Source of the DNA: Leishmania martiniquensis
Taxonomy: Eukaryota; Euglenozoa; Kinetoplastea; Trypanosomatida; Trypanosomatidae
DNA length: 64,000 nt
Direction of reading: 5' to 3'
Assembly: GCF_017916325.1 (NCBI RefSeq)
Contig: NC_090163.1
Span: 752,501-816,500, forward strand
Shown here: positions 946-47,181 of the stretch, one piece after another
Position numbering within the stretch: the stretch's first letter is position 1
Layout of the letters: every line of letters begins with the position of its first letter
Notes under the pieces: model-generated
The model's database searches: none
What the model was told of the DNA's origin: nothing
The model's input: only the letters and a program-made list of their open reading frames with translations
Made by a program: the position numbers and the translations under genes

Positions 946-3694
946 GTGCCGCCGCGAAGGAGCCGGCGATAGCGTAGGCGGACTACTGCCGTTTGCCCAC
1001 CTCTGCTGCGCGACAGCAAAATCCTCAGCGTCAAGGGCCAGTCTTCTCGCCGTCGAATCGGGTCATGCGTCTAGCGGCACCTCCTCTGCCGCCTCACCCC
1101 TTCCTCGCAGACATGCCGTCGACCACCCCTTCATTCGCTTCAAGCCGCGGCACCCCGTTGTGTGGTGCGGAGACTCATCGCCATGTAGCCTGGAGGGCGC
1201 GATAGCGTAGCGCCGGATGCTCCCGTCACCTTTCCAGCATCTGTTCCTCACCCGCCCGCCTCGTCGTGTGCACGAGGCGCCGCGAATGTCCCGCCCACGC
1301 ACGTGGGGACTGACTGGCGTCGATCCCTTTGAGTCTCGTTCGTCCACCACAGTGCAGCAAAGAGGGCCTACAGCTGATCCTTCTGGGGATCCGCATGCAG
1401 ACCTGGCCATCTCGGATTCCCTCTCCTCGAAGCAAGCACAGCCGCGTCGATCGTCTGAGGAATCCTTGATCTCGCGACTATAGCGCGGGCCCACACCCTC
1501 AGCCTCCTCAGCGACCTGATCTGCGGACTCGAACGCGCCAGCCCACTCCACACGTGCACACACACAGCCTTGGCAGCTGGCCGGCGTCGGGCTGCCCTGT
1601 GGAGGCAAAGGCCCCGGGCGCCTACGGCAGAGCGGTCAGAGACGAAAGTCGGACGGCCGTCGCTGGCGTGCCCCTTCCGCGTGGCCGAGCAGCCGTTGCG
1701 AGACAACTGAGCTCGAGTGGCTCACCCGCATTCCCCGCCAGCGCCGCAGGGGCGGTGGAGCGCGAGAGCGTCATCGGGCTTGGGTGACTTCAGGAGGGGA
1801 AGGGGGGGCGCAGTGAGCCCTCCTCTTGCCACGTCGCAGGGGCACGCAGCCGGCGCCGACGCTCTGGGCTGTAGGTGTTCAGCAGCGCACTCTCGCCACC
1901 CCTCGAGAGGGCATCGACGCGCTCACGGTAAGTGCTCTCGGCCGCAGGGAGGTGCCCCAGTGGACTTCGCGGGCACCCATCGCGAGCAGCTTGCAGGGCC
2001 TCGTGCTGCGCCGCCATGGGGCGTGGAGGAGGGCTGCCAGACGTCACCTTGGCTTCTGTGGGCCCATCCTCGGCCATGCCATGGTCTGCCCTCTCTCGCT
2101 CCCAGACTGCGGCCGCCTCGCTGCATTCCCAGTGCGCGCAGTGCGCGGGGGGGTCGATACCCTGCGTGCGGGGCCCGCTACTCAGGAACGCGGGAAGTAA
2201 CAGCATCACAGGGCTGCGCCCCTCTCCCTCGAAGTCAGGTCGTTGGAGATCGCTGAGGAGCATACCAGACGGGGTGCGGTGCTCAGGCGACGCAGTAGGT
2301 GCCCCCGTCGAGAGTCGCCTCCAGCGGCGTCAGCGCTGGGGTCCGCAGCGGCCGGTAAGCGGCCTTGCCAGATGACCCGGCTTTCCTGCTGGTCTTTGCT
2401 ATGAGTCCAGTCGGGAGCTCCGCCTTGTCCGCAACACATGCGTTGTCGATGCTGCTCTCTGCTGAGGCTGCCCTCGATGTGGCGCCATGGGCGACTCGCC
2501 CTCCCTCCCTGGCGCGCCGTCGGGCTGTCGTGATGGCCGGGGTCAGCGCGGCGCTCGGGAGCTCGCGCGTCTTCGCCGAGCCTGTCCTTGCCGGTCGATG
2601 TGGCAGTCACGCCGCGGTACAATCTGCGGCGTGCTCAGCGGAAAGAGCGCGATGAAGGCGCCGGTCCGCACCGGCGGCGCCCGGCCATATCCCGCCCCAA
2701 AGCGAATAGGGGGCCTTGGCCGCACAGCCGTCACTCCGCGCCGCGGTGACGGTGCCGCGGTCGTCATTGAAGCTGCTCAGCGCCGGGGCGGCGTCCGATG
2801 ACGTCCCCAAGGACCCCTCAGGGCTGTGCCGCGCCGAGGAGGCCCTTGGCGCGCGTCTGTCACGCACTTGCCGTGGTGCCCAGCCCCCAGAACGAGTCCA
2901 CGCCCGGTCGGTCCGTGCCTTCGCGTGCCCCACATCAGGCGGCGCGAGTCGGCGCTCACTCCAATACCGCGAGGGCCGGGCGCGATGTTGGTTGGCACCT
3001 CTTCACGGGTCTCGCGTGCCGCCACGTCAACCTGAGGCACACAGCTGGACGTCAGGTGTATCCGCCCAGCAGGGTCGACGTAGCAGAGTCAAACTGTCGC
3101 GGCCTCCGCCTCGCCCTGGAGAACGGAGGGACGCCCTACACCCGCGCCTGCGCCCTCTTGTGCGACCACAGAGACGCCACCTCCGTGCTTCTTTTCGCTT
3201 CCGGCACCGGAGTACCAACGACCCGGAAGAGCAGATGTCTTACAGACGCGTGCGAGGTGAAACGCGTCTCTCGCGGTGCACAGACTCGCATCGAAGATGC
3301 GTCAAGGAAAAAGCGAGGCCACCACCCCTTGGCGGCGCTCAGCTCCTTGCGATTCCACCGCACACAGCGCAGCCTGGGATATCGGCAGCGCACCAGTCGC
3401 CGCAAACGCGTTGCGCAGATGTGTACAGCTGTTGAATCGCCAGTATAACTCGTAGTGAGCTGGTCCACCGGTGGGCATAGCCGCACCGTCTCCTCGGCAC
3501 AACGGCAGCCCATGCCCAGCCCAGCTCCGCCGACCCCACAGAGTCCGCCAATCCACTCGATGGCAGGCTGCAGGATACCCCACAGAGAGAGAAGGGGAGA
3601 GCGCAGCTACACATGGGCGCTTTGCTGAGGCGGCCGGCATCGGGGCGGGGGCGCGTTTGAGGCGGAAAAGAAAAAGACGAAAAGGCGATGGTGA
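946..3694 (+). repeat. R1a: 2.75 kb dispersed repeat, probable decayed ingi/L1Tc-type retroposon
   Basis: This block recurs almost base for base at 44428-47181 in the same orientation. The copies part sharply at both ends: the left flanks differ before GTGCCGCCGCG and the right flanks differ after GGCGATGGTGA. The only differences I found are a G run of 7 here (near 2147-2153) against 12 in R1b, and one substitution at 3551. The plus strand has no long conserved frame. Around 2283-2300 there is a reading resembling the PQG turn of a reverse transcriptase, and about 36 codons later (2392-2406) a Phe-Ala-Asp-Glu reading if one base is restored, as in a FADD box. A helix reading LSAEAALDVAPWAT follows, like the RT thumb. 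A GSV reading near 2900 could be the start of an RNase H domain. The spacing fits a LINE-type RT. The assignment to the ingi/L1Tc clade is inference; the duplication is directly visible. Confidence 0.85.
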
Positions 3695-4319: not shown

Positions 4320-6293
4320 CTAGTCCAGTGGTGCAAGTGCCCCAGGCGTCTTGTACATGAGAAACTTGCAGACGATGGGCATCACACTGAACACTAAGAT
4401 ACCGAGTGTAATGCCAACGATGCAGTAAAAGGGAGTCGTCGTTTCTGCATCGGTGAAAGGGACTCGCACGTTCATGGCGAACAGGTTCGGTATGATCGTA
4501 ATGGGCATCAAGATGACAGCAATTTGCGTCTGCACGTGGTTCAGGTAGTCCATAAAGTTGCAGTGCGACAGGAGGCGCGCTGACACACCGCTGATGAGGG
4601 TCATGCTCGCCCGGTTGGCGATGTCGCGACCTTTGCGCAGGTGTAGCGCCATGCTTCGAATGGATGAGAGGGCACGCTGGTAGCGTTCCACTGCGTGTGA
4701 GGATCTGGAGAACGGCGTCAGGCGCATGGCTGGCAACAGCAGCTCCTTCAGCACTCGCTCCTTCTGCAAGGCGTCTATATGGACGAAGGCGATGCGATGG
4801 CGCAGGCTCTTGGTGCGCACCAGCATGTCATCCTGGTCCACGCGCGACGGCAGGATTTGAAGAACCAGCTCGTCAAGCTGGTCCGCCTCGATGAGCCGTG
4901 CTCGGGTGGACTGCTGGAGGGAGGCGATGATGGCGGAAACGAGGGAGCTGCACACAATGGAAATGGCTGTGGCTGCACGGCAGCCCGGCGATGTCGGGTC
5001 GTAAGGAGAGCCGAACCGCGTCATGGGCTGCTGGGCGTCGCTCAACTGCTGCACCGACAACCGAGATGGCAGACCGGCTGCGGGGTGTGCGAGTGGTGCC
5101 TCAGTTGCCGCTTCGATGCTCCTCTCCTTGGTTGAATCGCTCGCGTTGTCAAACAAGAGGTCTTTGCCGTGGTGGTGCTCCCACCCGGAGGCAATGGCGT
5201 CGCTCGTTGCTGTTTTCGCGCACTCTGCCCGCTTGTGCGCACCGATGGTCGACACCGGCGACGTTGAGCGACTCGCGACCGAGTGATTTCCCCGCACACC
5301 AGCTGCGTCGATGATGCTTGGAGATTCTGTAGACCACGTGAGGTCGGCCATGATGAGCTGCACGTCTTCTTCACCGCCAAAGTCACCCGCGCTGAAAGTG
5401 AAGAGCGCCGACTCAAAGGCCAAAGCCACCACCGGTGTGCATGGCAGCTGCGTGGCATGTAGACTTGCCCCATCACGCTCAATGATGCCGCGTTCCGCAC
5501 TCTCGGGCCCTTGCAGTGACATCGCCTGCAGACAGAGCACAGCGTAACCATGAGCAGGGAAGTATTCGAGGAAGTTCTCGCGCACCGGCATGTGGTGTCT
5601 AGAACTGCTGCCCTTCTCGTGCCACTCGTAGGAGGAGGGCTTCTTGTCCTCAGTGTCGCTACTGGGCTCGCCGCTCTCAGCGCCCGTGTGGCTGCACAGT
5701 GCTGAGATGATGCGGCGCCGTGTAAGCACATGGACTGGCAGGCTCGCCATAACCTTCTCCAGCTCTTCCTCTGTGGCCGCCTTGATGCTGACCCACGCCG
5801 GGCGAGCGTCGCCGCTGGGGGGAGATGTCGGAGAGAGCCTGATGGCCGGCAAGACGGAGTCGTCCTTTGCTCTGTCGACAGCGAGATCAGAGGGGAGCGC
5901 TGACGCGGCGTTCGCAGCTGTCATTGTGGAGGCGGGGAGCGGCGATGGGGTCTTTGCAAAGTGATCGCCGGTGCTCGGTGGCGAAGAGGAGATGGCACAG
6001 CACTGATCCTGTTCACGTAGCATCTGCTGCAGCGTGGAGGCATTGGGCACGTGGTGCCAGGTCGCTTGTGTCATGCCTTCGTCGAGGTAGCACACGCGGA
6101 TGTGGACGCCATCGGTGTTCTGCTCAACGCCACAGCCCGCTACAACATGCATCGTGTCACCACGAAGCAGCAGAGAGGGAGTGCTCTCCGGCGTTCCCGA
6201 GCTCCTCCACGTCATTTCTGCCTCCTCCGCGGAGGCACCGCCTCGGCGTTCGCGCGAAGTGGTCATGATGGATGCGTGTTGGCGAGCAAGCAA
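4320..6293 (-). CDS. CorA/MRS2-type divalent cation transporter with AMN in place of GMN
   Basis: Encodes 657 residues. The C-terminus has the two-helix architecture of CorA/MRS2/ALR magnesium transporters: a long helical stretch, transmembrane segment 1 (about 591-609), a short acidic loop, and transmembrane segment 2 (about 622-647), with a brief tail ending in LAPLD. In this family the first helix ends in Gly-Met-Asn, which forms the outer mouth of the pore. Here residues 606-608 read Ala-Met-Asn (4470-4478), so Met and Asn are kept and Gly is replaced. The first 400 residues are Ser/Thr/Ala-rich and poorly constrained, so the protein is longer than bacterial CorA (about 320 residues). The likely role is Mg2+ or other divalent ion transport. 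The membrane (plasma, acidocalcisome or mitochondrial) cannot be told, and no clear mitochondrial presequence is visible. The start at 6293 is the most upstream; Met10 (6266) is a plausible alternative. Confidence 0.87.
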   Translation of the reverse strand: MLARQHASIMTTSRERRGGASAEEAEMTWRSSGTPESTPSLLLRGDTMHVVAGCGVEQNTDGVHIRVCYLDEGMTQATWHHVPNASTLQQMLREQDQCCAISSSPPSTGDHFAKTPSPLPASTMTAANAASALPSDLAVDRAKDDSVLPAIRLSPTSPPSGDARPAWVSIKAATEEELEKVMASLPVHVLTRRRIISALCSHTGAESGEPSSDTEDKKPSSYEWHEKGSSSRHHMPVRENFLEYFPAHGYAVLCLQAMSLQGPESAERGIIERDGASLHATQLPCTPVVALAFESALFTFSAGDFGGEEDVQLIMADLTWSTESPSIIDAAGVRGNHSVASRSTSPVSTIGAHKRAECAKTATSDAIASGWEHHHGKDLLFDNASDSTKERSIEAATEAPLAHPAAGLPSRLSVQQLSDAQQPMTRFGSPYDPTSPGCRAATAISIVCSSLVSAIIASLQQSTRARLIEADQLDELVLQILPSRVDQDDMLVRTKSLRHRIAFVHIDALQKERVLKELLLPAMRLTPFSRSSHAVERYQRALSSIRSMALHLRKGRDIANRASMTLISGVSARLLSHCNFMDYLNHVQTQIAVILMPITIIPNLFAMNVRVPFTDAETTTPFYCIVGITLGILVFSVMPIVCKFLMYKTPGALAPLD

Positions 6294-9599: not shown

Positions 9600-11660
9600 T
9601 CAGACAGCATCCCGACTGACACGCCGAGAGGAGCTCTTTTCGAACACCTCCTCGTTGTTGTACACAGCCTTCATATGGGACCGAATGTAGAGGTGGTCCG
9701 CATCGCAGTGCTGCGTGCTCGTAATAGTCACCTCCGTGACGCAGCGCGGGCAGCTCACTTTGACCGTCTGGGTGATGGTGTACCGCGCCGAGAGTGGGTC
9801 ACGGTTGCTGAGCGCAAGCTCACGATGAAGGTTGTGCTTCAGCGTTGTGTCAATGTCCTCGAAGCAGAAGATGCCCTCACCGAACACGCCGCCGACGGAG
9901 GTGGTCACGCATGTCCAGGTGTCTCGCACGAGGTCGTACGAGATGGAGCGGTCCACGCGGCCTGGCGTCACGATTGTCATGGGTGTCGAAGCCGCCACCT
10001 CCGGAACCGGATCTGGCCCTGGGAACAAGGTGGCGCTCGGGGGGAGCACCGGGACGCGCAAGGCGGCCGTCGCGGCATCCAGCAGCAATGTCGTGTCCGT
10101 CGGCGAAGGCCACACCATGGGCCAATAGTTGTTCGCGAGCGACAGGGAGATGCTGTGGCCGGCCGGGACACAGTAGCCACAGAAGTCCATCGTCACTGTC
10201 ACCTGCACGGCCTGCCCCGGCTGTACCAGGGCGATGGCTCTGTCTCCCTCTGGACCGCAGTGCACGAGGTTCTTCATACCGTAGGTGAAGCGCGTCGCCG
10301 CCCCATCTGGCGCGATGTCGCAGAGCTGGGCAAACAGAAAACCCTTCGGATGATCACAGGTCAGGCTCACAGAGAAGGTCGGCTGGCCAAAGATGTCCAT
10401 GGCAGCCGTCAGGGGAGCTGAGATGTAGGTGACGGCCAGGCCGTTGTCCATGCGCTGGTCACCGGCCGTCTCGCCCATCACGCCCGCACCCATCCATTCA
10501 CCCGAGAGGAGTCCATGGTTCAACGGGGTGTGAACCACGACCATGTCGATCGCACTGGCGGCGCCGTCTTCAAGCACCTCTGCGAGAAGCCGGCTGGCAC
10601 CGAGGCCGTAGGTGACCGTCGGCACCTCAGCGCTCACCCACCTGTCCATTGCAACCCACTTGCCAGGCGCCACCGGCTTGCTCGTGCACGGCGGCATCGA
10701 ATCCTCGATGTAAGCCTGGAGCACCGGCCACCTCGCCACGTCGTTATCCTTCCGACCCTTCATCCAGTGGTCCCACCAGTCCTTGGCCGCGCGCAGGAAG
10801 TTCATCTGAGGCATTGGTGAACCGTCCTGGGGGTAAACGTGCGCCCACGGGCCGCAAATGGCCTTACGCGGCACCCTAAGCTCCTCTAGCAGGTGGAAGA
10901 GAGCGTTCGTGTACGAGTCCGCCCAACCATCGACGAGGAGCACTGGCACCTGGATGGCGCTGTAATCCTCCTGGATGGACCCGTGCTTCCAGTACCCGTC
11001 GTACCGCTGGTGCTCGGCCCAGTCGGCGGCATTCAGCGGCATCGCACTCAGCCTCTTCACCCACATCTCCTTCCAGTTATCGCCAACGAGGTCACCGTCC
11101 GGCGGGCAGGACTGAAAGCCCTGCATGATACAGCCCCACCAGAAGTTGTCGTTCAGCAAGCATCCCCCCTTCCAGTGGATGTCGTCGGTGAAGCGGTTGT
11201 GCGTAAAGCCTAAAACGATGATGGCACGCAGTGCAGGAGGACGACGAGCGGCTACTTGCAGCGAGTTAAAGCCACCCCACGACTTTCCCATCATGCCAAC
11301 ATCACCGGTGCACCACGGCTGCTCGCTAATCCAGTCGATTACCTCCAGCGCATCGTCCTGCTCCTGCTTTAGGTACTCATCGAGCAACAAGCCATCAGAC
11401 TCACCGGCACCGCGCATGTCGACACGAACCGATACGTAGCCTTGGCCGGCGAAGAAGCCGTGCATCGGCTCATCGCGGATGCGAGTGCCATTGCGCTTGC
11501 GGTATGGGATGTACTCCAGAATGGCCGGATACTGGTGCTCCGAAGACGCGTCCTTGGGCATGAACAGCCGTGCAGCGAGGCGGATACCATCTTTGAGGGG
11601 AATGTAAATGTGCTCCACGAACCGCGTCGGATGCGGAGGATCTGTGCACACCCGGCGCAT
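9600..11660 (-). CDS. S15/CocE-NonD-type alpha/beta serine hydrolase (X-Pro dipeptidyl-peptidase-like)
   Basis: Encodes 686 residues from the Met at 11660. The N-terminal alpha/beta-hydrolase domain carries the nucleophile elbow GKSWGG (Ser127, codon 11280-11282) after the conserved oxyanion region YVSVRVDMRGAGES. The other triad residues are Asp248 in DGWADSY and His274 in GPWAH. A lid segment separates the nucleophile from the Asp. The last 200 residues form the jelly-roll C-terminal domain of the family (motifs SAPLTAAMDIFGQP and PAGHSISLSLANNYWP). Family members hydrolyse acyl esters, amides or Xaa-Pro peptides; the substrate here cannot be inferred. An open frame continues upstream to 11888, but that stretch includes the polypyrimidine tract at about 11672-11720, which looks like a trans-splice signal, and conserved sequence begins only after 11660. 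No signal peptide is seen with the 11660 start. Confidence 0.93.
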   Translation of the reverse strand: MRRVCTDPPHPTRFVEHIYIPLKDGIRLAARLFMPKDASSEHQYPAILEYIPYRKRNGTRIRDEPMHGFFAGQGYVSVRVDMRGAGESDGLLLDEYLKQEQDDALEVIDWISEQPWCTGDVGMMGKSWGGFNSLQVAARRPPALRAIIVLGFTHNRFTDDIHWKGGCLLNDNFWWGCIMQGFQSCPPDGDLVGDNWKEMWVKRLSAMPLNAADWAEHQRYDGYWKHGSIQEDYSAIQVPVLLVDGWADSYTNALFHLLEELRVPRKAICGPWAHVYPQDGSPMPQMNFLRAAKDWWDHWMKGRKDNDVARWPVLQAYIEDSMPPCTSKPVAPGKWVAMDRWVSAEVPTVTYGLGASRLLAEVLEDGAASAIDMVVVHTPLNHGLLSGEWMGAGVMGETAGDQRMDNGLAVTYISAPLTAAMDIFGQPTFSVSLTCDHPKGFLFAQLCDIAPDGAATRFTYGMKNLVHCGPEGDRAIALVQPGQAVQVTVTMDFCGYCVPAGHSISLSLANNYWPMVWPSPTDTTLLLDAATAALRVPVLPPSATLFPGPDPVPEVAASTPMTIVTPGRVDRSISYDLVRDTWTCVTTSVGGVFGEGIFCFEDIDTTLKHNLHRELALSNRDPLSARYTITQTVKVSCPRCVTEVTITSTQHCDADHLYIRSHMKAVYNNEEVFEKSSSRRVSRDAV

Positions 11661-11720
11661 CTCGGAGAGGCGGTGCAGGTGAAATGAGATAGAGAGCGAG
11701 AGAGAGCGCAAACGGGAAGT
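11661..11720 (-). promoter_or_regulatory. candidate trans-splice acceptor for the S15 hydrolase
   Basis: Read on the minus strand, a CT-rich tract (about 11720-11672) is followed by an AG at 11662-11661 that directly precedes the ATG at 11660. If used, the 5' UTR would be only the spliced leader. An acceptor here would exclude the 228-base upstream extension of the frame. Confidence 0.4.
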
Positions 11721-13886: not shown

Positions 13887-14740
13887 AAAGCAGCGCGACC
13901 CCGTGGTTCCGCTCGCCAAGTGGACTGCCAGCGCTGAGGATGCAGCGAGCATGCGTGTGCTTTGCCTGTACCGACGCCTTCTACTGCGCGAATGCCCAGC
14001 ATCGCCATCTGCTCACTCATCGGTCAGCCGCTCGCACCCGCGCTCATCGCTGGGCAGGACCGCAGGCCGCACGTCTGCGAGCAGGCGGTCGCCCGCCAAA
14101 GCCCGCGGAGAGCCGTCTCGGGCCGTCTGCAGTGCTTTTGTCCACGCACGGCGGCTCGCGGAAGGCGATGCAGGACTGCGGCCCCCTTAGCACCCTCACA
14201 GCTCCGTCGCATACACGCGTGGGGCGCTTCGCTTCGCTCGCCCTTGCCCTTTCCGCCACGCGGAAAGCATTCTGAAGCCCCGCTCCACAGCCGTCGCCCA
14301 GCACCCGCCATTTTCGCGCGGTCTGCAGTATACGTGGGTCGGGGCGATCGCCCTCGTTCCTCAAGAGCCTACGATGGCCGCGCTGGGCTGCAGCGAGTCC
14401 GTCGATCGGCCCCCAACCGGGTCACCGCGAATCGCCCGTGATGCCGGACGGATGGAAGGACGTGCTGCCCCCCTCCAGCCCAGCGAGCGATACAGAGTGA
14501 ACGCCCCTTTGCCTACGATGACGAGCCCCACCGGAGCCAACATGGCGTACACAAAGCGGTGTCGAGTGGACCATTGTGGATGGTGCAGTCCTCTGCTTCG
14601 CGCTCGCTTGCTCTGTAGAGTGTGTGTAGGGAAAGGGGGAGAGGGAGGAGGGGAAAAGGGAGCTGAGCTCACCTGCCGGCTGCGGGAGGAGAGGAGAAGC
14701 GCGATTCGTCATGATGCGCCGCGGTGTGGTACGCGCTCAT
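13887..14740 (+). repeat. R2a: 854-bp dispersed repeat
   Basis: Recurs at 39560-40413 in the same orientation and equal length. The one difference I noticed is C at 14241 against T at 39914. The copies share AAAGCAGCGCG at the left and ACGCGCTCAT at the right, beyond which they diverge at once. The unit includes a plus-strand frame with a C-x2-C-x12-H-x3-H zinc-finger pattern, a GC-rich middle, and a GA-rich stretch near its right end. No flanking target-site duplication or poly-A tail is evident. Confidence 0.92.
13958..14020 (+). other. C2H2 zinc-finger motif remnant in R2a
   Basis: In the plus-strand frame 13940-14275 the reading has Cys-Phe-Ala-Cys, twelve residues, His-Leu-Leu-Thr-His, which is an exact C-x2-C-x12-H-x3-H spacing. 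C-terminal CCHH fingers are characteristic of L1Tc/ingi-type elements. The frame stops 85 codons later and is not supported as a gene. Confidence 0.55.
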
Positions 14741-15956: not shown

Positions 15957-18503
15957 TCAGCTGACGATACCTAGATTCTTCAAGATCCGCGCCAGCACAG
16001 CCTTCTCCTCTACCACGCGGTAATCGTGCAGCTTCACAAACATGCTTGCGTGCCCCTTGACTGCCTTCCGCAGCTCCATGGTGTAGCGAATGGAGTTGCG
16101 CATAGCCACAACCGCCGTGACAGACCGGCCGTCCTCCTGCACGTCGACGGTGCGCGCATGATGTTCGTTGAGAGAGCTGACGACGCTGCCAATGTAGGCG
16201 GGCTCGGGGAGATGCACCTCCAGCTCCATCATTGGCTCCAGCAGCGCCAAGTCGGCCTTTCGCGTCGCTTTGAGCACGCCCAGCAGTGCTGCGCGGGCGA
16301 CTTGGGTCAGCGACTTCTCCTGCAGCTGCGAGCCAGCCGTCTTGCGGAAGTAGGTCAGCACCACCTCCACGCCGTGCATCGGCAACCCTGCCAGAGGGCC
16401 CATCCGCATGCACGCATGCACAGCGGAGTGGAAGGAGGCTGCAATGATGCGAAGCTCCTCTTTGGCGTTGCGCACGTCAGCCATGCGAGCCCCACTCGAG
16501 AAGCCGCCGCCCTGCTGCTGCCTCCCAACGCTGAGGAACTCTTCTTCAAAGGCGCTATCGATGCGGAAGCGGCACTGATCCATAGCGCTGCACTCCTCGC
16601 CATTCTGCAGCAGCGGCCGCAGCTCGAGTGAGCACTCCGCGTAAGGTAGGTCGTTCAGTAGGCACAAGTGCCTTTCCAGTGACTGGGGCGCTCGAATCGT
16701 CTCCCGATACTCGACGATCGTGCGCAGCAGCCGACACTTCACCTGGTACTCGTTCGCGAGCCGCGAGAGAATGATTTCCAAGTGCAGCTCCCCCATCCCA
16801 CTAACCACCACCGTCCCCTGCTCGCTCTCAGTGACACGCAGGCTGGGGTCCTCCCTGGAGAGCTCGGTCAGGGCGCCCTTCAGCAACTCCACCTGATTGT
16901 GTGTGGCAGCCTCGATGGAGAAAGAGATGACGGCTGGCGGGGCACTGATGCCCTCCAGCGTGTGCACCTCCTCCTTCACGTCTCCAGGCCTTACGTGCTG
17001 CTTGGCCTGCAGGAGGTGCTGCGACGGCTGACTGAAGAGTGTGTCGCCGGTGTATGTGTCGGCCAAGAAAGCCGCGCCGATCTGGCCAGCCTCCAAGTGC
17101 GGCACCTCCACCGGCAGGTTTGCGTGCATCACATAGAGCTTCTCGATCAACTCTGACTTCAGCCGGGTGTTGTTATTGAGGCGCATGCGAGGGCTAATCC
17201 GGCCACTGTACACACGCATGAATACAAGAGGGAGGCGCTGCCCCTTGCCTGGGTGCATCATATGCGTGACCTTGAAGGCGAGGGCCACGGTCGGCACTGT
17301 CGGCGAGGACGAAGCAGGCGGAAGGGGCACCGGTGTGCCGTGTTTCGTGAAGCCGGTCAGTTGCCGATCACAGGGCGAGGGCAGGTAGTACGTCACAGCG
17401 TCCAGGAGCGGCTGCACGCCTAGATCGCGACGAGAGGCGCCACAGAGCACCGGGATTAGTGGCGGCCTACCGCGTGGCGGGTGCAACACCGACCGGCGCA
17501 CGGCGGCGCGCAGCGCCTCAGTGGAAAGCCGCCGCTCCGCCTCAGCCTCGTCGCCGTCTGTGGCGTCCAATTGCTCGATGAACGCCTCCGACAGCGCATC
17601 GTCGAAAGCGGTGAGCTGAGTCACGAGGTCGTGGCGCGCCTTGCGCAAGGAGCGAGCTACGTGCGCCAGCTCGTGATTTGTGGTGCTGCGACTGTCATCC
17701 GTGGACAGCGACGCGTCGCTGATACGGCTGAGGTCAGTTCGCCGCACCTCGCGCCCGTGGGTACCGTCGAAGCGGCACGCCACCTGCTCTACGAGGTCGA
17801 CCACGCCAGCGAAGCTGCCGTCCTCGGCGTGTAGGGGAATCTGCAGCAGCAGCGGTTCCAATTGAAGCTTGGTGCGAATCGAATCCACCGACAGGGCAAA
17901 GTCGGCGTTGTACTTGTCCATCTTATTCAGGAAGGCAAGCAGCGGTGCGCCATACTTGCGACTCTGCTGCAGCACCATATAGCTCTGCGCCTGCACACCG
18001 GCAGACGCATCAAAGAGCGCCACAACACCGTCAACAACTCGCATCGCCCGCTCCACCTCGACGGTGAAGTCGGCGTGACCGGGGGTGTCGATGAGGTTAA
18101 TGCCGTGATCTCGCCACCGCAGGGAGACTGCGGCGGACTGAATGGTGATGCCACGGTCCGCCTCCTCCTTCATGAAGTCCGTTGTCGTCGTGCCGCTGTC
18201 CACGTCGCCGACGCGCTTCGTGGCACCGGCGCAGAATAGCATCCGCTCCGTCGTGGTTGTTTTCCCAGCGTCGATGTGCGCCACAATGCCAATGTTGCGC
18301 ACCTTTCGCACTGCCTCATCTGCCTCACGCTCGCCTCCCCCGCCGGCGAAACGGCCTGAGCAACGAGAAAGGGCGGGGGAGGCGAGTAACGGAAGACTTG
18401 TGTGCAGGGGCCCATAGGCGCGAGTGCTCGGCAGCTGGCCAGCGCCACAGACCCGCCCACACCAGGTCCACCGCACAGGACGCGGGAGCCACCGGTGCAG
18501 CAT
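15957..18503 (-). CDS. mitochondrial elongation factor G2-like GTPase (GFM2/MEF2-type)
   Basis: Encodes 848 residues. The first 55 are rich in Arg, Leu and Ser with no acidic residues, as in a mitochondrial presequence. The GTPase domain has P-loop AHIDAGKT (75-82), switch region RGITIQSAAV (118-127), DTPGH (139-143) and NKMD (193-196). The stretch GDVDSGTTTTDFMKEE resembles the GFM2 branch (ribosome recycling with RRF) more than GFM1, which usually reads differently there. Domains II to V follow, including SGMGELHLEIIL in domain III and GLPMHGVEVVLTYF in domain IV. Human GFM2 is about 780 residues; the excess is at the N-terminus and in insertions between the G domain and domain II. The likely role is splitting of mitochondrial ribosomes after termination. 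Assignment to the EF-G superfamily is firm; the G2 subtype is inferred. Confidence 0.93.
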   Translation of the reverse strand: MLHRWLPRPVRWTWCGRVCGAGQLPSTRAYGPLHTSLPLLASPALSRCSGRFAGGGGEREADEAVRKVRNIGIVAHIDAGKTTTTERMLFCAGATKRVGDVDSGTTTTDFMKEEADRGITIQSAAVSLRWRDHGINLIDTPGHADFTVEVERAMRVVDGVVALFDASAGVQAQSYMVLQQSRKYGAPLLAFLNKMDKYNADFALSVDSIRTKLQLEPLLLQIPLHAEDGSFAGVVDLVEQVACRFDGTHGREVRRTDLSRISDASLSTDDSRSTTNHELAHVARSLRKARHDLVTQLTAFDDALSEAFIEQLDATDGDEAEAERRLSTEALRAAVRRSVLHPPRGRPPLIPVLCGASRRDLGVQPLLDAVTYYLPSPCDRQLTGFTKHGTPVPLPPASSSPTVPTVALAFKVTHMMHPGKGQRLPLVFMRVYSGRISPRMRLNNNTRLKSELIEKLYVMHANLPVEVPHLEAGQIGAAFLADTYTGDTLFSQPSQHLLQAKQHVRPGDVKEEVHTLEGISAPPAVISFSIEAATHNQVELLKGALTELSREDPSLRVTESEQGTVVVSGMGELHLEIILSRLANEYQVKCRLLRTIVEYRETIRAPQSLERHLCLLNDLPYAECSLELRPLLQNGEECSAMDQCRFRIDSAFEEEFLSVGRQQQGGGFSSGARMADVRNAKEELRIIAASFHSAVHACMRMGPLAGLPMHGVEVVLTYFRKTAGSQLQEKSLTQVARAALLGVLKATRKADLALLEPMMELEVHLPEPAYIGSVVSSLNEHHARTVDVQEDGRSVTAVVAMRNSIRYTMELRKAVKGHASMFVKLHDYRVVEEKAVLARILKNLGIVS

Positions 18504-32044: not shown

Positions 32045-34342
32045 TCAGAAAGCTTGTGAGACGGACTTGCGAAGTGGTGGGTTCGGGTCCTGTGACGGGG
32101 ACGGTTCGATGCAAGGCGGGAATGTCTGGATGCTCGCGGATCGCTGCAGCTCTACTCCCTCCGGGTGGTGCTCGCCAGATTCGTCGTTCGGGTGCGCAAT
32201 GTCCGGGGGTATATCCTGCGACACCTGCAGCGTCGTGCACCGCTCCGTCACCATGATGCTCGCATTTTGGCTCATGCGGCTCAGAGAGCGCTGAAGGGAG
32301 TTGGTAGTGGGAAGAAGCTGTGCTTGGTGGAGCTGCTGACCCTGCTGCTTGTGCGACCCGTCGTCGCCAGCGTCCGCCGCGGCAGTGGCCCTACCGTAGC
32401 TACTCGATCCGGACTTGCTGTTCATGCGCTGGTAAGCCGACCCGTTGGAGCCGCTCGGGCTCGCTGTTGTAGCGCTGCCCTTCGCACGGAACCCGGTCGA
32501 CTGCGGCTGGTTTCCAGGACTGCTGCTACGCTGGGGGCTGGCAGTGGGCCTGCCACTGATGCGCTCACCAACGCCACAGTGACACTCCCGGCGGGCCTCG
32601 AGTTCACTGACGCGGGCCGTCAGCGCCTGGATCTGCGAGTGCTGATGCTGAATGGAGCCCTGTAATACCTTGATAATCCTCTTGAGCACCCTTGTTGTGT
32701 CCGGATTACACGGGGTGTCCTGCAGCTCGTCTACCAACGCCTCGATGCTCTCGTCGACTTTCTTGGAAGGTGCGGGTAGCAGGTGCCCTGCCTCGGCTTG
32801 GGGAGAGCGAGATGAGGAGTGGAGAGACGCCGGCACAGAGCGCGGCGCCCGAGGCTGCGCACTGGCATCTGCGGATGGAGCAAGGTCACCCGGCGCGCTC
32901 TCTCCGTGCCGATGTCGATGGCGATGTGGGCTGCCGTTCTTCTGCCGACTGCGGCGAGAGGAGCTACGATGGGACGGCGGCTCCTGCACCTGCACCGCGT
33001 CCTGCTCTGCCGGGCTTACAGCGCGCGACGAGCGGCTGGCCGGGCGACTGGCTGGACGGCTTCCGCCGCGCTCACTGCGGCGGTGCGATGATGCAGTTCG
33101 GCTCGCAGGCTGGCCATCAGCCCTCGAGCGTGACTGTGCGCGGGAACCTGCGCGAGACTGCCGGCGCGACTGCGCACGCGAGTAGCGGCGCAGGCTCTTC
33201 GTGGCCAGGTACGCATCACGGTCGTCGGGCCCCACGTAGATGGGATGCAGGTCCAGCTTTTCCTCCCGCATCGCATTGCCTTCGTCCACATTGGACGCAA
33301 TGAGCTCGCAGGCGTCGGTGACGAGTGCGGCGAGGGTGCTGTTCGTCTCCTGCACAGCCTGAATGAGAGCTAGTGTGCTCTTTGGGTTCAGCTTCCACCC
33401 GTAGATATCCAGCAGGAGCAGAGTGCGGTTGTGCGGGATGGCCGACAGGACGGTTGCTGCCGCCTCAGGGGAGGGGCTCATGAAGCCTAGGAAGAGCTGT
33501 ATGAGCGACGTGTTGCGGGCAATGACATCAGCGAAGAGCACGATGGTTCCGCTATCCAGCTGGTTGTGGCGCATATTTAAGCGCTGCACCGTGCACGCGG
33601 GGTCCAGGAGAGCCCGCACAAGCTCCCTACCACCCTCGCCGCTGATGCGGTTGGCAGTAAGGTCAAGCGTAGAGAGGCATACCGCGTGCGGAATGCTGCG
33701 AGCGATCTGCGCGGCTCCATTGTCGCGCAGAGCGTTATAACCGAGATGGAGGTGCTTCAGCTTCGGTGCAGTCCGCAGCGCCTGCCCAATGTACGAGGCG
33801 GCGTCGCACTCGATCTTATTGTTGTGGAAACTGAGCTCCACAATATCGGAGAAGGACTGCTGCAGCGCCGCCGCAATCGGGATAACGCCCAGCTTCGTGA
33901 TGTTGTTCTCGGAGAGATCCAACACCTTCAAGCCGCACCCGCTTCGGGACAGAGTGTTCCCAATAACCACTGCCGCCTGATCCTTCAGGTTGTTCTTGCC
34001 GAGGCGTAGCTCGCGGATGTGGTTTGGGTTGGCCTCGATTGCCTCCATCAAAGCCGTCACGCCCGGCAGGCCAAACGAGTTCTCCTCGAGCACCAGTACC
34101 CGCAGCTGGCTGCTGTCGCTGAGCGTTCGAATCACCTCTGCGACGCAGCAAACATCGACATCGTTCAGCGGGAGGGTGCCTTGGCCCAGTGCAGCGGTCT
34201 TGGCATCTGTGTCGAGGGCTTGGACAAAAGCATCGGAGATCTGCGCATGCTCACGCTTGCAGGCGCTCATGTACGCCCCCGCTGCAGCACTGTGCACCAA
34301 TGCCATCGTTGTGCGCTTCTCTTTTTTTCGTGCCTTTCCCAA
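32045..34342 (-). CDS. RNI-type leucine-rich-repeat protein with Arg/Ser-rich tail and coiled coil
   Basis: Encodes 765 residues. From about 70 to 330 there are successive 28-residue leucine-rich repeats of the ribonuclease-inhibitor type: LRVLVLEENSFGLPGVTAL, IRELRLGKNNLKDQAAVVI, LKVLDLSENNITKLGVIPIA, then IVELSFHNNKI, LKHLHLGYNALRDNGAAQIA and LSTLDLTANRISGEGGRELV. These form a curved binding surface. Residues 385-490 are dominated by Arg/Ser/Gln and Arg/Pro/Ala/Ser repeats with a His/Arg run, probably disordered and basic. A short coiled coil (about 548-582, TRVLKRIIKVLQG to ALTARVSELEA) follows, then a Ser-rich tail. Such proteins in flagellates are often cytoskeletal or flagellar, but nothing here fixes a partner. 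There is no signal peptide or membrane span. Met13 (34306) is a possible alternative start. Confidence 0.86.
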   Translation of the reverse strand: MGKARKKEKRTTMALVHSAAAGAYMSACKREHAQISDAFVQALDTDAKTAALGQGTLPLNDVDVCCVAEVIRTLSDSSQLRVLVLEENSFGLPGVTALMEAIEANPNHIRELRLGKNNLKDQAAVVIGNTLSRSGCGLKVLDLSENNITKLGVIPIAAALQQSFSDIVELSFHNNKIECDAASYIGQALRTAPKLKHLHLGYNALRDNGAAQIARSIPHAVCLSTLDLTANRISGEGGRELVRALLDPACTVQRLNMRHNQLDSGTIVLFADVIARNTSLIQLFLGFMSPSPEAAATVLSAIPHNRTLLLLDIYGWKLNPKSTLALIQAVQETNSTLAALVTDACELIASNVDEGNAMREEKLDLHPIYVGPDDRDAYLATKSLRRYSRAQSRRQSRAGSRAQSRSRADGQPASRTASSHRRSERGGSRPASRPASRSSRAVSPAEQDAVQVQEPPSHRSSSRRSRQKNGSPHRHRHRHGESAPGDLAPSADASAQPRAPRSVPASLHSSSRSPQAEAGHLLPAPSKKVDESIEALVDELQDTPCNPDTTRVLKRIIKVLQGSIQHQHSQIQALTARVSELEARRECHCGVGERISGRPTASPQRSSSPGNQPQSTGFRAKGSATTASPSGSNGSAYQRMNSKSGSSSYGRATAAADAGDDGSHKQQGQQLHQAQLLPTTNSLQRSLSRMSQNASIMVTERCTTLQVSQDIPPDIAHPNDESGEHHPEGVELQRSASIQTFPPCIEPSPSQDPNPPLRKSVSQAF

Positions 34343-35025
34343 CTTGGAACCGGAGAATGAATACGGCGAGGAAGGCGCACTCGGCTCCGCACTAACGTCT
34401 CCGCCAGCAGCAAGTCTTCGAAGGACTGTGTTTGTTGAGCGAAGCTGCTTTGCTCAGGGATGCGTTCTGGGTGGGTGGGTGTAATGCTCAACCCTTTACG
34501 CCAGAGAGGTACAGCGGAGGCGGATAACAGCAGGCGATGCGAAGAGGCCGGCAAAGAGACAGAAAAGTGGGGAGAGGGAGGGCTGAGAGACACGTCGCGC
34601 GGAGATGGAGAGTGGACATGGCGTGCGCACGCGCGCGAGAGAGAGAAGAATCCACAAGGGAACTATGGGGAAACGGAGGGGCAAACGCACACGCAAACAG
34701 CGGCACGAGGAGCTGACACAGTTAATCCTGCGCTGCCCAGGCCTCTCCCTCCCTCCACCCCCCTCCACCCACTCACACGCATACACGAGACCGGCACAGA
34801 CCGGGAAAGGGGGAGACTTTTGGGTTTCTTCATCTCTTCTCGAAGACGTTTTTTCTTCGCTTCATTCTGCAGGCGAGAGATGTCCCTCCACAGCAAACGT
34901 CGCACTGTCGAAGAAAAACTTTATTATTTCCGCTTTTCATTCATACTGCACCGTCGCAGCCATTCCACGCGTCTCCCCTCTCGCCCGTAAAGCATTCAGT
35001 TCAAACGTCACTATGCCCACCACCA
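34343..35025. other. intergenic upstream of the LRR gene, left flank of R3b
   Basis: GA-rich plus strand at 34500-34830, consistent with the 5' flank and splice signals of the LRR gene. No gene supported. The 323-codon plus-strand frame 34605-35576 is this biased spacer fused by chance to the open frame of R3b. Confidence 0.5.
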
Positions 35026-35664
35026 CCGGCCTGTCGCAGGCCCAACCGCTCCGCGGTGCGAAGCAGTCGTGCTTACACCGCGCATCCAGGCGCCGAGTCG
35101 GCCCATCTCAGCACATCCGCCTCGACCGTTACTCGCTCGGCCCCTCCCGCTGCGAGCATCACCGCCCCACAGCCGCTCCAGCGATGCCAGGCGCCACCTG
35201 CCGCACCTCTCGCGGCCCGGCTCAGGCTCCCCACCAGTGGGCAGTGAGGGCCGCGCAAGGCATCTTCGAGTCACGCTGGCACGCTGCCTATCACGTGGAT
35301 GGCGCGAGCACGCCTACGGTCGCAGGTCGCTCCGAGGCGACGCCATCCGCAAAGCTACATACACGCGGACTCGGATACGCCGTAGGTGCGTCACCCCGCT
35401 CCCAACAGAAGCGCATCAGCATCAGCAAAGGCCGCAGGGAGGGCTGCGCGGGCTACCCGCACAGAGTGGGGCACGGCACACACACACACAAGCCGAGACG
35501 CTGCCCCGCCAAGAGGGGTGTCCCCACCACCACCGCCAACAGTCAACAGCCGTTCATCACGGAGCGCCGCAATTAGGCGACGAAAGTAGGAAAAAAACGA
35601 GAGCGTTGAAGGATGCGCGTACAGCTGTGTGAGGTGCCGGGAGAGAACGTCGGCTGCAAATAGA
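35026..35664 (+). repeat. R3b: second copy of the 639-bp repeat
   Basis: Equal in length and orientation to R3a (20643-21281), with a single observed substitution at 35602. The left flank (CCCACCA) and right flank (AAGGAGAGAG) differ from those of R3a, so this is a discrete unit rather than part of a longer duplication. The two copies bracket a 14.4 kb segment with RpiB, the TRPC4AP-like gene and the LRR gene. Confidence 0.92.
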
Positions 35665-36623: not shown

Positions 36624-36953
36624 TCAGGCTGAGATCCGGTACGGCTCACGGAACGACGGCAATGAATGAGCGACGGTGACGCCAGCCGTCTCGGGAAAGG
36701 TGAGCGGCGCCGCCTCCGCTGGGAGTGGGCAGCGCTGCTTTACCATCTCCTCCGCCCGCTCCCGCACCACAAGCTGCTCCGACGGCAGCCGTCGCCATGC
36801 TGAGGTGGCGTACAGGGCCACCAAGGCAAAAATCATGAGGGCTACGACGCGGTACTGAGGAACGAGTAGAACACAAACGACGAGGTAGATGCAGATGGCG
36901 GCCAAGCAAGCGTAGTACAGCACCCGACAGCACATTCCAGTGACACATGCCAT
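36624..36953 (-). CDS. small two-span membrane protein, paralogue of the gene at 38006
   Basis: Encodes 109 residues and I do not recognise the family. Two hydrophobic segments, at about 11-31 and 36-52, are followed at once by WRRLPSE (53-59) and a polar C-terminal tail of about 50 residues. The upstream neighbour has the same plan: two spans, then WRRLPSE, then an Ala/Glu-containing stretch ending in a Cys, then a Pro/Glu-rich tail. This shared motif in the same position relative to the second span is the main evidence that both are real genes. No signal peptide cleavage site is evident; the first span may act as a signal anchor. The function is unknown. The start is the first Met of the frame. 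Confidence 0.65.
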   Translation of the reverse strand: MACVTGMCCRVLYYACLAAICIYLVVCVLLVPQYRVVALMIFALVALYATSAWRRLPSEQLVVRERAEEMVKQRCPLPAEAAPLTFPETAGVTVAHSLPSFREPYRISA

Positions 36954-38005: not shown

Positions 38006-38533
38006 TTATCGAATGGCGCAAGCAGCAGCGGACGGAATGAGAGACGGATAATACTGATGCACCTGCAGTTCTTCGTGCCGGCAGTCGGGCGACGATTCGG
38101 GCTCTGCAAGAGCATAGTAGCCGCCACAACGGAGGAGAATAACTTCGGCGCTCTTCGCCTCTAGCAGGCACCTCTCCGACGGCAGGCGCCGCCAGAGGGA
38201 AAAGACAACCGTCGGTAGCAGTAGGGCCCACATAATCACGGGGCCGCGCCAAGCTGCGGACGCGACCATCGCATACACCATGAAGGCGTAAACGATAGCC
38301 AGTCCGCACCAGTACGTGACGAAAAAGAGAAGCGGCAGAATGCTCACATCGAGAGGCTGCACCTCAACGTGGCCTGCGGGCATTGCCACGGCCGCCACAT
38401 TGTCATGCTGCGAGCGCTCTGGGGTCACGATGCAGTTCCGCTGAGGTGCAGAGAGCGCGCCCATCGGCGTTTCGGCTGGGAAAAGGCTCGGCTCTTCGAA
38501 CGGAGAATGAAGGGAAAACGTTTCGCAGGACAT
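38006..38533 (-). CDS. two-span membrane protein, paralogue of the gene at 36624
   Basis: Encodes 175 residues from the Met at 38533 (MSCETFSLHS). A hydrophilic N-terminal region of about 60 residues precedes hydrophobic segments at about 62-92 and 98-113. The second span is followed directly by WRRLPSE (114-120), then LEAKSAEVILLRCGG and a Glu/Ser/Pro-rich tail. The motif, its position after span two and the length of the tail match the next gene downstream (36624-36953), which lacks the long N-terminal region. The open frame reaches 38860, but the added 109 residues are Phe/Ser/Leu-rich and look like translated splice-signal DNA. The family is not recognised and the function is unknown. The pair probably arose by tandem duplication and diverged. 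Confidence 0.65.
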   Translation of the reverse strand: MSCETFSLHSPFEEPSLFPAETPMGALSAPQRNCIVTPERSQHDNVAAVAMPAGHVEVQPLDVSILPLLFFVTYWCGLAIVYAFMVYAMVASAAWRGPVIMWALLLPTVVFSLWRRLPSERCLLEAKSAEVILLRCGGYYALAEPESSPDCRHEELQVHQYYPSLIPSAAACAIR

Positions 38534-44427: not shown

Positions 44428-47181
44428 GTGCCGCCGCGAAGGAGCCGGCGATAGCGTAGGCGGACTACTGCCGTTTGCCCACCTCTGCTGCGCGACAGCA
44501 AAATCCTCAGCGTCAAGGGCCAGTCTTCTCGCCGTCGAATCGGGTCATGCGTCTAGCGGCACCTCCTCTGCCGCCTCACCCCTTCCTCGCAGACATGCCG
44601 TCGACCACCCCTTCATTCGCTTCAAGCCGCGGCACCCCGTTGTGTGGTGCGGAGACTCATCGCCATGTAGCCTGGAGGGCGCGATAGCGTAGCGCCGGAT
44701 GCTCCCGTCACCTTTCCAGCATCTGTTCCTCACCCGCCCGCCTCGTCGTGTGCACGAGGCGCCGCGAATGTCCCGCCCACGCACGTGGGGACTGACTGGC
44801 GTCGATCCCTTTGAGTCTCGTTCGTCCACCACAGTGCAGCAAAGAGGGCCTACAGCTGATCCTTCTGGGGATCCGCATGCAGACCTGGCCATCTCGGATT
44901 CCCTCTCCTCGAAGCAAGCACAGCCGCGTCGATCGTCTGAGGAATCCTTGATCTCGCGACTATAGCGCGGGCCCACACCCTCAGCCTCCTCAGCGACCTG
45001 ATCTGCGGACTCGAACGCGCCAGCCCACTCCACACGTGCACACACACAGCCTTGGCAGCTGGCCGGCGTCGGGCTGCCCTGTGGAGGCAAAGGCCCCGGG
45101 CGCCTACGGCAGAGCGGTCAGAGACGAAAGTCGGACGGCCGTCGCTGGCGTGCCCCTTCCGCGTGGCCGAGCAGCCGTTGCGAGACAACTGAGCTCGAGT
45201 GGCTCACCCGCATTCCCCGCCAGCGCCGCAGGGGCGGTGGAGCGCGAGAGCGTCATCGGGCTTGGGTGACTTCAGGAGGGGAAGGGGGGGCGCAGTGAGC
45301 CCTCCTCTTGCCACGTCGCAGGGGCACGCAGCCGGCGCCGACGCTCTGGGCTGTAGGTGTTCAGCAGCGCACTCTCGCCACCCCTCGAGAGGGCATCGAC
45401 GCGCTCACGGTAAGTGCTCTCGGCCGCAGGGAGGTGCCCCAGTGGACTTCGCGGGCACCCATCGCGAGCAGCTTGCAGGGCCTCGTGCTGCGCCGCCATG
45501 GGGCGTGGAGGAGGGCTGCCAGACGTCACCTTGGCTTCTGTGGGCCCATCCTCGGCCATGCCATGGTCTGCCCTCTCTCGCTCCCAGACTGCGGCCGCCT
45601 CGCTGCATTCCCAGTGCGCGCAGTGCGCGGGGGGGGGGGGTCGATACCCTGCGTGCGGGGCCCGCTACTCAGGAACGCGGGAAGTAACAGCATCACAGGG
45701 CTGCGCCCCTCTCCCTCGAAGTCAGGTCGTTGGAGATCGCTGAGGAGCATACCAGACGGGGTGCGGTGCTCAGGCGACGCAGTAGGTGCCCCCGTCGAGA
45801 GTCGCCTCCAGCGGCGTCAGCGCTGGGGTCCGCAGCGGCCGGTAAGCGGCCTTGCCAGATGACCCGGCTTTCCTGCTGGTCTTTGCTATGAGTCCAGTCG
45901 GGAGCTCCGCCTTGTCCGCAACACATGCGTTGTCGATGCTGCTCTCTGCTGAGGCTGCCCTCGATGTGGCGCCATGGGCGACTCGCCCTCCCTCCCTGGC
46001 GCGCCGTCGGGCTGTCGTGATGGCCGGGGTCAGCGCGGCGCTCGGGAGCTCGCGCGTCTTCGCCGAGCCTGTCCTTGCCGGTCGATGTGGCAGTCACGCC
46101 GCGGTACAATCTGCGGCGTGCTCAGCGGAAAGAGCGCGATGAAGGCGCCGGTCCGCACCGGCGGCGCCCGGCCATATCCCGCCCCAAAGCGAATAGGGGG
46201 CCTTGGCCGCACAGCCGTCACTCCGCGCCGCGGTGACGGTGCCGCGGTCGTCATTGAAGCTGCTCAGCGCCGGGGCGGCGTCCGATGACGTCCCCAAGGA
46301 CCCCTCAGGGCTGTGCCGCGCCGAGGAGGCCCTTGGCGCGCGTCTGTCACGCACTTGCCGTGGTGCCCAGCCCCCAGAACGAGTCCACGCCCGGTCGGTC
46401 CGTGCCTTCGCGTGCCCCACATCAGGCGGCGCGAGTCGGCGCTCACTCCAATACCGCGAGGGCCGGGCGCGATGTTGGTTGGCACCTCTTCACGGGTCTC
46501 GCGTGCCGCCACGTCAACCTGAGGCACACAGCTGGACGTCAGGTGTATCCGCCCAGCAGGGTCGACGTAGCAGAGTCAAACTGTCGCGGCCTCCGCCTCG
46601 CCCTGGAGAACGGAGGGACGCCCTACACCCGCGCCTGCGCCCTCTTGTGCGACCACAGAGACGCCACCTCCGTGCTTCTTTTCGCTTCCGGCACCGGAGT
46701 ACCAACGACCCGGAAGAGCAGATGTCTTACAGACGCGTGCGAGGTGAAACGCGTCTCTCGCGGTGCACAGACTCGCATCGAAGATGCGTCAAGGAAAAAG
46801 CGAGGCCACCACCCCTTGGCGGCGCTCAGCTCCTTGCGATTCCACCGCACACAGCGCAGCCTGGGATATCGGCAGCGCACCAGTCGCCGCAAACGCGTTG
46901 CGCAGATGTGTACAGCTGTTGAATCGCCAGTATAACTCGTAGTGAGCTGGTCCACCGGTGGGCATAGCCGCACCGTCTCCTCGGCACAACGGCAGCCCAT
47001 GCCCAGCCCAGCTCCGCCGACCCCACAGAGTCCGCCACTCCACTCGATGGCAGGCTGCAGGATACCCCACAGAGAGAGAAGGGGAGAGCGCAGCTACACA
47101 TGGGCGCTTTGCTGAGGCGGCCGGCATCGGGGCGGGGGCGCGTTTGAGGCGGAAAAGAAAAAGACGAAAAGGCGATGGTGA
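44428..47181 (+). repeat. R1b: second copy of the 2.75 kb repeat
   Basis: Matches R1a (946-3694) almost base for base. It is five bases longer because the G run at about 45629-45640 has 12 instead of 7 bases, and it has C at 47038 where R1a has A. The same decayed RT-like readings occur at the corresponding places. The right end is followed by an A-rich stretch (AGAAAGAAAAAATC), which could be a remnant of an A-rich tail, though the equivalent sequence after R1a is not A-rich. The near identity of two copies of a broken element points to recent duplication or gene conversion. Confidence 0.88.

What the first reader, a model, noticed from the sequence alone, without database searches (positions are those of the whole stretch)
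946..47181. Three repeat families nested like brackets, all in direct orientation
R1 (946-3694 / 44428-47181), R2 (13887-14740 / 39560-40413) and R3 (20643-21281 / 35026-35664) occur in the order R1-R2-R3-R3-R2-R1 with every copy reading the same way. Recombination within each pair would release or duplicate a nested block: R3 about 14.4 kb (RpiB, TRPC4AP-like, LRR), R2 about 25.7 kb (adds the GFM2-like gene and the two small membrane proteins), R1 about 43.5 kb (adds the S15 hydrolase and CorA-type genes). Leishmania is known to form circular amplicons through direct repeats. For three pairs placed at random the fully nested order is one of 15 possible pairings, so the order alone is not improbable.
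Basis: partly seen in the sequence, partly recalled or inferred. Interest (0 to 1): 0.75.

Follow-up and report, generated by a model that had tools for sequence, protein, structure and literature searches.

The report
Nested direct repeats in Leishmania chromosome
Three pairs of near-identical non-coding repeats sit one inside another on a Leishmania chromosome; they look like members of the long-known class of repeats with which this parasite copies or loses stretches of DNA, and the nesting itself is not unusual.

Summary
The three pairs are real: R1 2.75 kb, R2 854 bp, R3 647 bp (8 bp longer than stated), 99.5-99.9% identical, all direct, order R1-R2-R3-R3-R2-R1, with sharp edges. Two full copies of each were found in the genome. 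The host is a Leishmania of subgenus Mundinia, probably L. martiniquensis. The blocks show no sign of coding, are GC-rich and lie between genes. R3 and R2 belong to old dispersed families: relatives elsewhere are 64-80% alike, yet R3-family copies near each other are mostly 97-100% alike (21 of 26 pairs). That is the published 'proximity' pattern of SIDER2 repeats and fits local homogenisation by recombination; SIDER2 membership itself was not shown. Locus tags suggest conserved gene order for part of the nest. By geometry the pairs are substrates for RAD51-dependent circles and annealing deletions of 14.4, 25.7 and 43.5 kb, as shown at other Leishmania loci; several direct-repeat pairs round one gene are already published (MRPA). 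Nesting has chance 1/15 (0.12 with these spans). No data on actual amplification here were available. New member of a known kind; low interest.

The parts
946..3694 (.). R1a, 2749 bp, 67% GC, no sign of coding; 626 bp 3' of the CorA-type gene
   Evidence: two copies found in genome
44428..47181 (.). R1b, 2754 bp, direct copy of R1a; in a gene-poor stretch 3' of a kinase gene
13887..14740 (.). R2a, 854 bp, 66% GC; 1217 bp 3' of the EF-G-type gene
   Evidence: diverged relatives on C32, C33, C34, C36
39560..40413 (.). R2b, direct copy of R2a (one difference)
20635..21281 (.). R3a, 647 bp, 66.6% GC, contains the core of a dispersed family (about 20780-20965); 422 bp 3' of RpiB
35018..35664 (.). 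R3b, direct copy of R3a (three differences); family profile built without R3 matches 34978-35519
4320..6266 (-). CorA-type transporter gene, inside R1 interval
   Evidence: Pfam PF01544; homologues in Leishmania and Leptomonas
9600..11660 (-). S15/CocE-type hydrolase gene, inside R1 interval
15957..18503 (-).
21703..22176 (-). RpiB gene, inside R3 interval
23805..28106 (-). 1433-aa protein, no family match
32045..34306 (-). LRR protein gene, inside R3 interval
36624..36953 (-). 109-aa conserved Leishmania protein gene, between R3b and R2b
38006..38533 (-). candidate 175-aa protein with a strongly hydrophobic stretch, between R3b and R2b
   Evidence: codon score and hydropathy only

Best explanation
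R1, R2 and R3 are three independent two-copy intergenic repeat groups (RAG type) on one Leishmania (Mundinia) chromosome. R3 and R2 belong to two old dispersed GC-rich families; R3's family behaves like SIDER2, though SIDER2 membership is not shown. R1 has no clear family. Nearby copies are kept nearly identical by ectopic recombination (gene conversion or recurrent local copying) while copies farther away drift to 64-80% identity. The copies are therefore potential substrates for homologous recombination: RAD51-dependent crossing-over would give circles or tandem duplications, and single-strand annealing would give deletions, of 14,383, 25,673 or 43,482 bp. The nested order is a by-product of three local pairs falling in the same 46 kb. 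Shown: the repeats, their identity, edges, copy number found, family relations of R2 and R3. Inferred: homogenisation by recombination. Inferred from other loci: actual recombination products.
For: Identity 99.5-99.9% with abrupt ends; two full copies each found genome-wide; nine local groups with two or more R3-family copies, 21 of 26 within-group pairs at 97-100%, the other five 92.9-96.9%, against 64-80% between groups or elements of the R2 and R3 families; in the five-copy C35 group the high-identity stretch ends at different places for different pairs; no codon phase in R2 and R3 substitutions and no Pfam match in 12 ORFs in or next to blocks; block GC 66-67% against 56.7% for other non-coding DNA of the window, near the published SIDER2 mean of 66.5% (PMC2424063); four of six copies lie 0.4-1.2 kb 3' of a gene; published recombination at such repeats: 40 of 48 tested chr23 amplicons seen by PCR, circles reduced in RAD51 nulls (PMC4028189), annealing deletions across 9-77 kb (PMC6706467).
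Against: No reads, no other strain and no second Mundinia DNA could be examined, so neither conversion nor amplification at this locus is directly shown. No target-site duplications. The C35 four-gamete test had two informative sites only (one incompatible pair of one), too few to prove conversion. R1 has no convincing relative (one 155-bp, 71% match), so its origin is open. The first 28 letters of the T. cruzi Pr77 signature do not match R3 above shuffled noise. The control region of 80 kb of the same chromosome held no near-identical pair, although it holds one R3-family element without a partner.
Confidence: 0.8

Rival explanations
1. Recent one-time duplications: each block was copied once, lately, to a second site (templated insertion or aborted recombination), and identity simply reflects youth.
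For: Sharp edges and 1-3 substitutions per pair; R1 has no diverged full relatives to show an older history. PMC12278014 (passage) takes low-divergence element copies in Leishmania as a possible sign of segmental duplication.
Against: All nine R3-family local groups would have had to duplicate lately and separately; RAGs are shared at over 60% between L. major and L. infantum with conserved synteny (PMC4028189), so such repeats can be old and still alike.
Confidence: 0.25
2. Assembly artefact: one copy of each pair was duplicated or misplaced, or the copies were made alike by short-read polishing.
For: Cross-mapping of short reads can blur differences; the R1 indel is in a G run (7 against 12 G), typical of long-read error.
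Against: Flanks of partners differ; the window has no N; CorA and LRR homologues have locus tags 6 apart in two Leptomonas species and 4 apart in Porcisia, against five or six steps here, and LRR and the 109-aa gene have consecutive tags in L. enriettii; this covers R1a-R3b only, not R2b and R1b. If this is the LSCM1 assembly, Nanopore read N50 was 15 kb, longer than every block (PMC8210701).
Confidence: 0.05
3. A selected amplification ladder: the nested order is maintained because it lets the cell amplify gene sets of three sizes.
For: Geometry fits; at the MRPA locus different clones used different direct-repeat pairs (PMC4028189).
Against: Nesting chance is 1/15 or 0.12; the recognised enclosed genes have unrelated functions; the one paper listed and the two are, by title, not about such a Leishmania amplicon.
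Confidence: 0.04

Closest known systems
Repeat alignment groups (RAGs) of Leishmania, Ubeda et al. 2014 (PMC4028189)
   Same: Non-coding, at least 200 bp, at least 85% identical, low copy (242 of 507 in L. major have two members), usually one chromosome, direct or inverted, on average 1-100 kb apart.
   Different: The passages I read cover L. major, L. infantum and L. braziliensis, not Mundinia; the word 'nested' does not occur in the main text.
MRPA locus direct repeats B-B' and C-C' in L. infantum (PMC4028189, section 10)
   Same: More than one direct-repeat pair round the same gene, each able to give its own circle.
   Different: Resistance locus with observed circles; here no observed products.
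Direct repeats of the miltefosine-transporter locus and the 77-kb pair on chr24 of L. donovani (PMC6706467, passages)
   Same: 460-bp and 1,110-bp direct repeats in intergenic or flanking DNA, used for single-strand annealing.
   Different: At the transporter locus one family supplies several alternative pairs; here each pair is a different sequence.
SIDER2 proximity subfamilies (PMC2424063, PMC11520807; passages)
   Same: R3: size, GC, dispersal over chromosomes, near-identical neighbours beside unrelated genes.
   Different: Signature and A-rich tail not established here; R1 and R2 not shown to be SIDER2; PMC2424063 says members of a subfamily lie close without other SIDER2s between them, which cannot be judged for R1 and R2.

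Membership tests
RAG (repeat alignment group) | at least 200 bp and at least 85% identity between members | tested here: met
   647-2754 bp, 99.5-99.9%
RAG (repeat alignment group) | non-coding | tested here: met
   no Pfam match in 12 ORFs in or next to blocks (2, 10); no codon periodicity in R2 and R3 substitutions. Weaker for R1: only a 155-bp relative to compare and no protein homology search of its ORFs
RAG (repeat alignment group) | low copy, confined to one chromosome | tested here: met
   two full copies of each found, both on C28 (the tool gives lower bounds)
RAG (repeat alignment group) | supports amplicon or deletion | not testable with these tools
   needs reads or PCR
SIDER2 (R3 only) | about 550 bp, about 66% GC, dispersed on many chromosomes, local subfamilies | tested here: met
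   shared blocks of nine groups 340-661 bp, 62.6-72.0% GC; relatives on 8 chromosomes
SIDER2 (R3 only) | 79-nt (Pr77) signature at 5' end | tested here: inconclusive
   first 28 letters of the T. cruzi L1Tc Pr77 as printed in PMC4748587: best score in R3 is 9, in the window 11, in 20 block-shuffled windows 10-14; exact CCACC-N4-CGTG absent from R1, R2, R3. No support with the T. cruzi form; the Leishmania SIDER2 form was not available
SIDER2 (R3 only) | A-rich 3' tail | tested here: inconclusive
   one A7 run at R3 574-580 on + strand
SIDER2 (R3 only) | sense orientation when inside a 3'UTR | tested here: inconclusive
   element sense and 3'UTR ends not established
Single-strand-annealing substrate | direct repeats within the published 9-77 kb range | tested here: met
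   14.4, 25.7, 43.5 kb (PMC6706467); actual use not testable

The most novel reading that the evidence does not exclude
Ectopic recombination between nearby repeats is continuous and GC-biased in Leishmania, so the high GC of these blocks (67% in a 2.75-kb block, against at most 58.9% in 76 other non-coding windows of that length) is a footprint of recurrent gene conversion, and block GC could be read as a gauge of how often a repeat pair recombines. Five papers hold both 'Leishmania' and 'GC-biased gene conversion' (listing only); by title none is about Leishmania repeats.
Probability: 0.1. Interest if true: 0.5.

Novelty: new member of a known kind. Interest (0 to 1): 0.22.

Why it matters
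It extends the RAG/proximity picture to a Mundinia genome; if the species is L. martiniquensis, to one with few annotated INGI-type elements (116, against 1118 in L. enriettii; Table 1 of PMC12278014). It also gives a clean test locus: three unrelated repeats, three interval sizes, one orientation, in one 46-kb stretch. Comparing junction frequencies of the three pairs in one cell population would help to separate effects of repeat length and distance on circles and annealing deletions.

Tried and rejected
Rejected or without support: coding function of the blocks; known structured RNA or tRNA in the window (0 matches to 4227 Rfam families at gathering score, 0 tRNAs); Rfam at E<=1 in 12 of the loci then held gave 4 sub-threshold microRNA/snoRNA matches and no HDV-like ribozyme; homology among R1, R2 and R3 (best E 0.095); target-site duplications (longest common string 2-4 bases, null mean 3.8); Pr77 signature in R3 (not above shuffles). 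The GC-bias idea as main explanation: four elements without a near-identical partner found are 61.6, 69.1, 65.3 and 65.6% GC (partners searched for three of them; the C34 one only through), against 62.6-72.0% for 12 homogenised ones, so no separation; in its favour only that the C14 core, largely without partner, is lowest of ten (61.4%). TRPC4AP label not supported.

Paper searches: (1 paper; 2 papers), seen as listings, held nothing on this locus or on nested repeats by title; PMC7105377 was looked through for repeats and chromosome 28 and gave only a reference-list hit; some searches were seen as listings, from which some of the papers named here were taken.

Full report
What was claimed and what is there. 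Differences are one substitution and a 5-base difference in a G run for R1, one substitution for R2, three for R3 (the G run is 7 against 12 bases). Laxer scoring moves an edge by at most 9 bases, and 900-bp flanks of partner copies, compared with gaps allowed, give no match better than E 0.028.

Where it is. The window lies at C28:752501-816500 of a 32.3-Mb genome in 41 contigs. The LRR protein (32045-34306) is 83% identical to L. enriettii and L. orientalis proteins, 76% to an L. donovani and 71% to an L. braziliensis one, so the host is a Leishmania of subgenus Mundinia (that L. enriettii and L. orientalis are Mundinia is as in PMC12278014). L. martiniquensis is the likely species: its published LSCM1 genome has 32,413,670 bases in 42 scaffolds (PMC8210701, text part 1 of 2 read), close to but not the same as the figures here. 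The species is an inference.

Gene setting. The genes recognised by family or homologue are on the minus strand: CorA-type, S15/CocE hydrolase, EF-G-type GTPase, RpiB, LRR protein, a conserved 109-aa protein, a kinase, GRIM-19 and DPCD; a 1433-aa open frame with coding-like composition has no family match. R1a, R2a, R3a and R3b lie 626, 1217, 422 and 960 bp beyond the stop codon of the next gene upstream in the sense of transcription; R2b and R1b lie in about 12 kb with no well-supported gene. Locus tags of the CorA and LRR homologues are six apart in Leptomonas seymouri (ABL78_3049, 3043) and L. pyrrhocoris (ABB37_01598, 01592) and four apart in Porcisia (JKF63_03617, 03621); LRR and the 109-aa gene have consecutive tags in L. 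enriettii (CUR178_04571, 04572). This window shows five steps from CorA to LRR, or six if the unsupported 245-aa frame at 28308-29045 is a gene. Tags are a proxy for order, not a map, and cover R1a to R3b only; they speak against a scrambled assembly of that part and against a duplicated block of genes.

What the repeats are. Two full-length copies of each were found in the whole genome (the tool gives lower bounds). R2 has 70-79% relatives on C32, C33, C34 and C36 (8 of the 10 rows). R3's core (positions 146-331) has diverged relatives in 24 of the 26 rows, on C8, C14, C21, C27, C28, C30, C35 and C36. I compared 31 of the 38 loci then held, leaving out L001-L004, L007, L011 and L012. There are nine local groups with at least two R3-family copies, the window pair included, and 26 within-group pairs. 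Twenty-one are 97-100% identical over about 280-660 bp; the other five are L034/L035 (92.9%), L018/L035 (96.6%) and L027/L034 (96.9%) on C35 and the two C8 pairs with L036 (94.8% over 172 bp). Between groups or elements, identity is 64-80% for the R2 and R3 families together. Excluding the window pair, 17 of 25 within-group pairs are direct and 8 inverted. In the five-copy C35 group the stretch of near-identity stops at a different place for different pairs. A profile built without R3 still finds both R3 copies (E 9e-62 and 7e-60).

Blocks are GC-rich: 66-67% against 56.7% for the window's other non-coding DNA; the richest of 76 other non-coding 2750-bp windows has 58.9%, while the maxima for 650 and 850 bp are 66.2 and 65.6%, close to R3 and R2. 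Nine R3-family blocks have 62.6-72.0% GC and 340-661 bp. Published SIDER2 means are 66.5% and 550 bp (PMC2424063, abstract and passages). PMC11520807 (passages) reports that 88.4% of SIDER2 clusters have their members on one chromosome, that neighbours are most alike, and that this is not due to gene duplication. The pattern here is the same. I do not file R3 as SIDER2: the part of the Pr77 signature that I could assemble from print (T. cruzi form, 28 letters) scores no better in R3 than in shuffled sequence, and tail and orientation were inconclusive. R2 is a second dispersed family. R1 has no clear family (one 155-bp match at 71%).

How it would work. Established for other loci: repeats of at least 200 bp and 85% identity form 507 groups in L. 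major, 242 of them two-copy; 40 of 48 tested chromosome-23 amplicons gave the expected PCR product (25 at direct, 15 at inverted repeats); circles fall in RAD51 nulls; at the MRPA locus two direct-repeat pairs B-B' and C-C' can give circles (PMC4028189, passages and section 10). In L. donovani, breaks at the miltefosine-transporter gene were repaired mainly by single-strand annealing, and annealing was seen between direct repeats up to 77 kb apart, less often at larger distance (PMC6706467, passages). By geometry R3, R2 and R1 would yield 14,383, 25,673 and 43,482-bp products, with R3 favoured by distance and R1 by length; this is inference, and no reads were available. Chromosome 28 was trisomic in one LSCM1 culture and disomic in two drug-resistant ones, and gene copy-number changes did not track resistance there (PMC11984574, passages).

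Is the nesting special? 1 of 15 pairings is nested; with the actual spans placed at random in 64 kb, 0.12. In 104 kb round the window (2.5 kb masked) there are six near-identical pairs, the three here and three among a neighbouring direct/inverted group at 824-844 kb; in one 80-kb control from the same chromosome (2.5 kb masked) there are none, though it holds one partnerless R3-family element.

Against my reading. Conversion is inferred from the within/between pattern; only two informative sites exist in the C35 group. Recent independent duplication, of R1 above all, is not excluded. Polishing could hide true differences, so identities may be upper bounds.

Verdict. A real, ordinary member of a known class; the bracket-like order is a coincidence until shown otherwise.

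Noticed in passing
L008 1608-3302 (C32 about 407.2-408.9 kb) and L010 1-1695 (C32 about 19.6-21.3 kb): An inverted near-identical pair of at least 1695 bp (99.88%), nearly 390 kb apart, beside or within R2-family elements; far apart for such identity.
   Followed up: no
window 38534-50773: About 12 kb without a well-supported gene between minus-strand genes; contains R2b and R1b as GC-rich islands.
   Followed up: partly
L015-L017 (C28 822-846 kb): Three near-identical copies (98.9-100%) of an R3 relative, one of them inverted to the other two, starting about 24 kb beyond R1b; inverted pairs are the published route to linear amplicons.
   Followed up: partly
L028 (C14 372997-373528): Only 168 of 532 bp have a 100% identical partner 13 kb away (C14:359858-360025), and that part is 71.4% GC against 61.5% for the 338 bp that follow it: a possible partial conversion tract.
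   Followed up: partly
window 34978-35018: The family profile runs about 40 bp past the left edge of R3b but not of R3a, a weak hint that R3b is the older copy.
   Followed up: no
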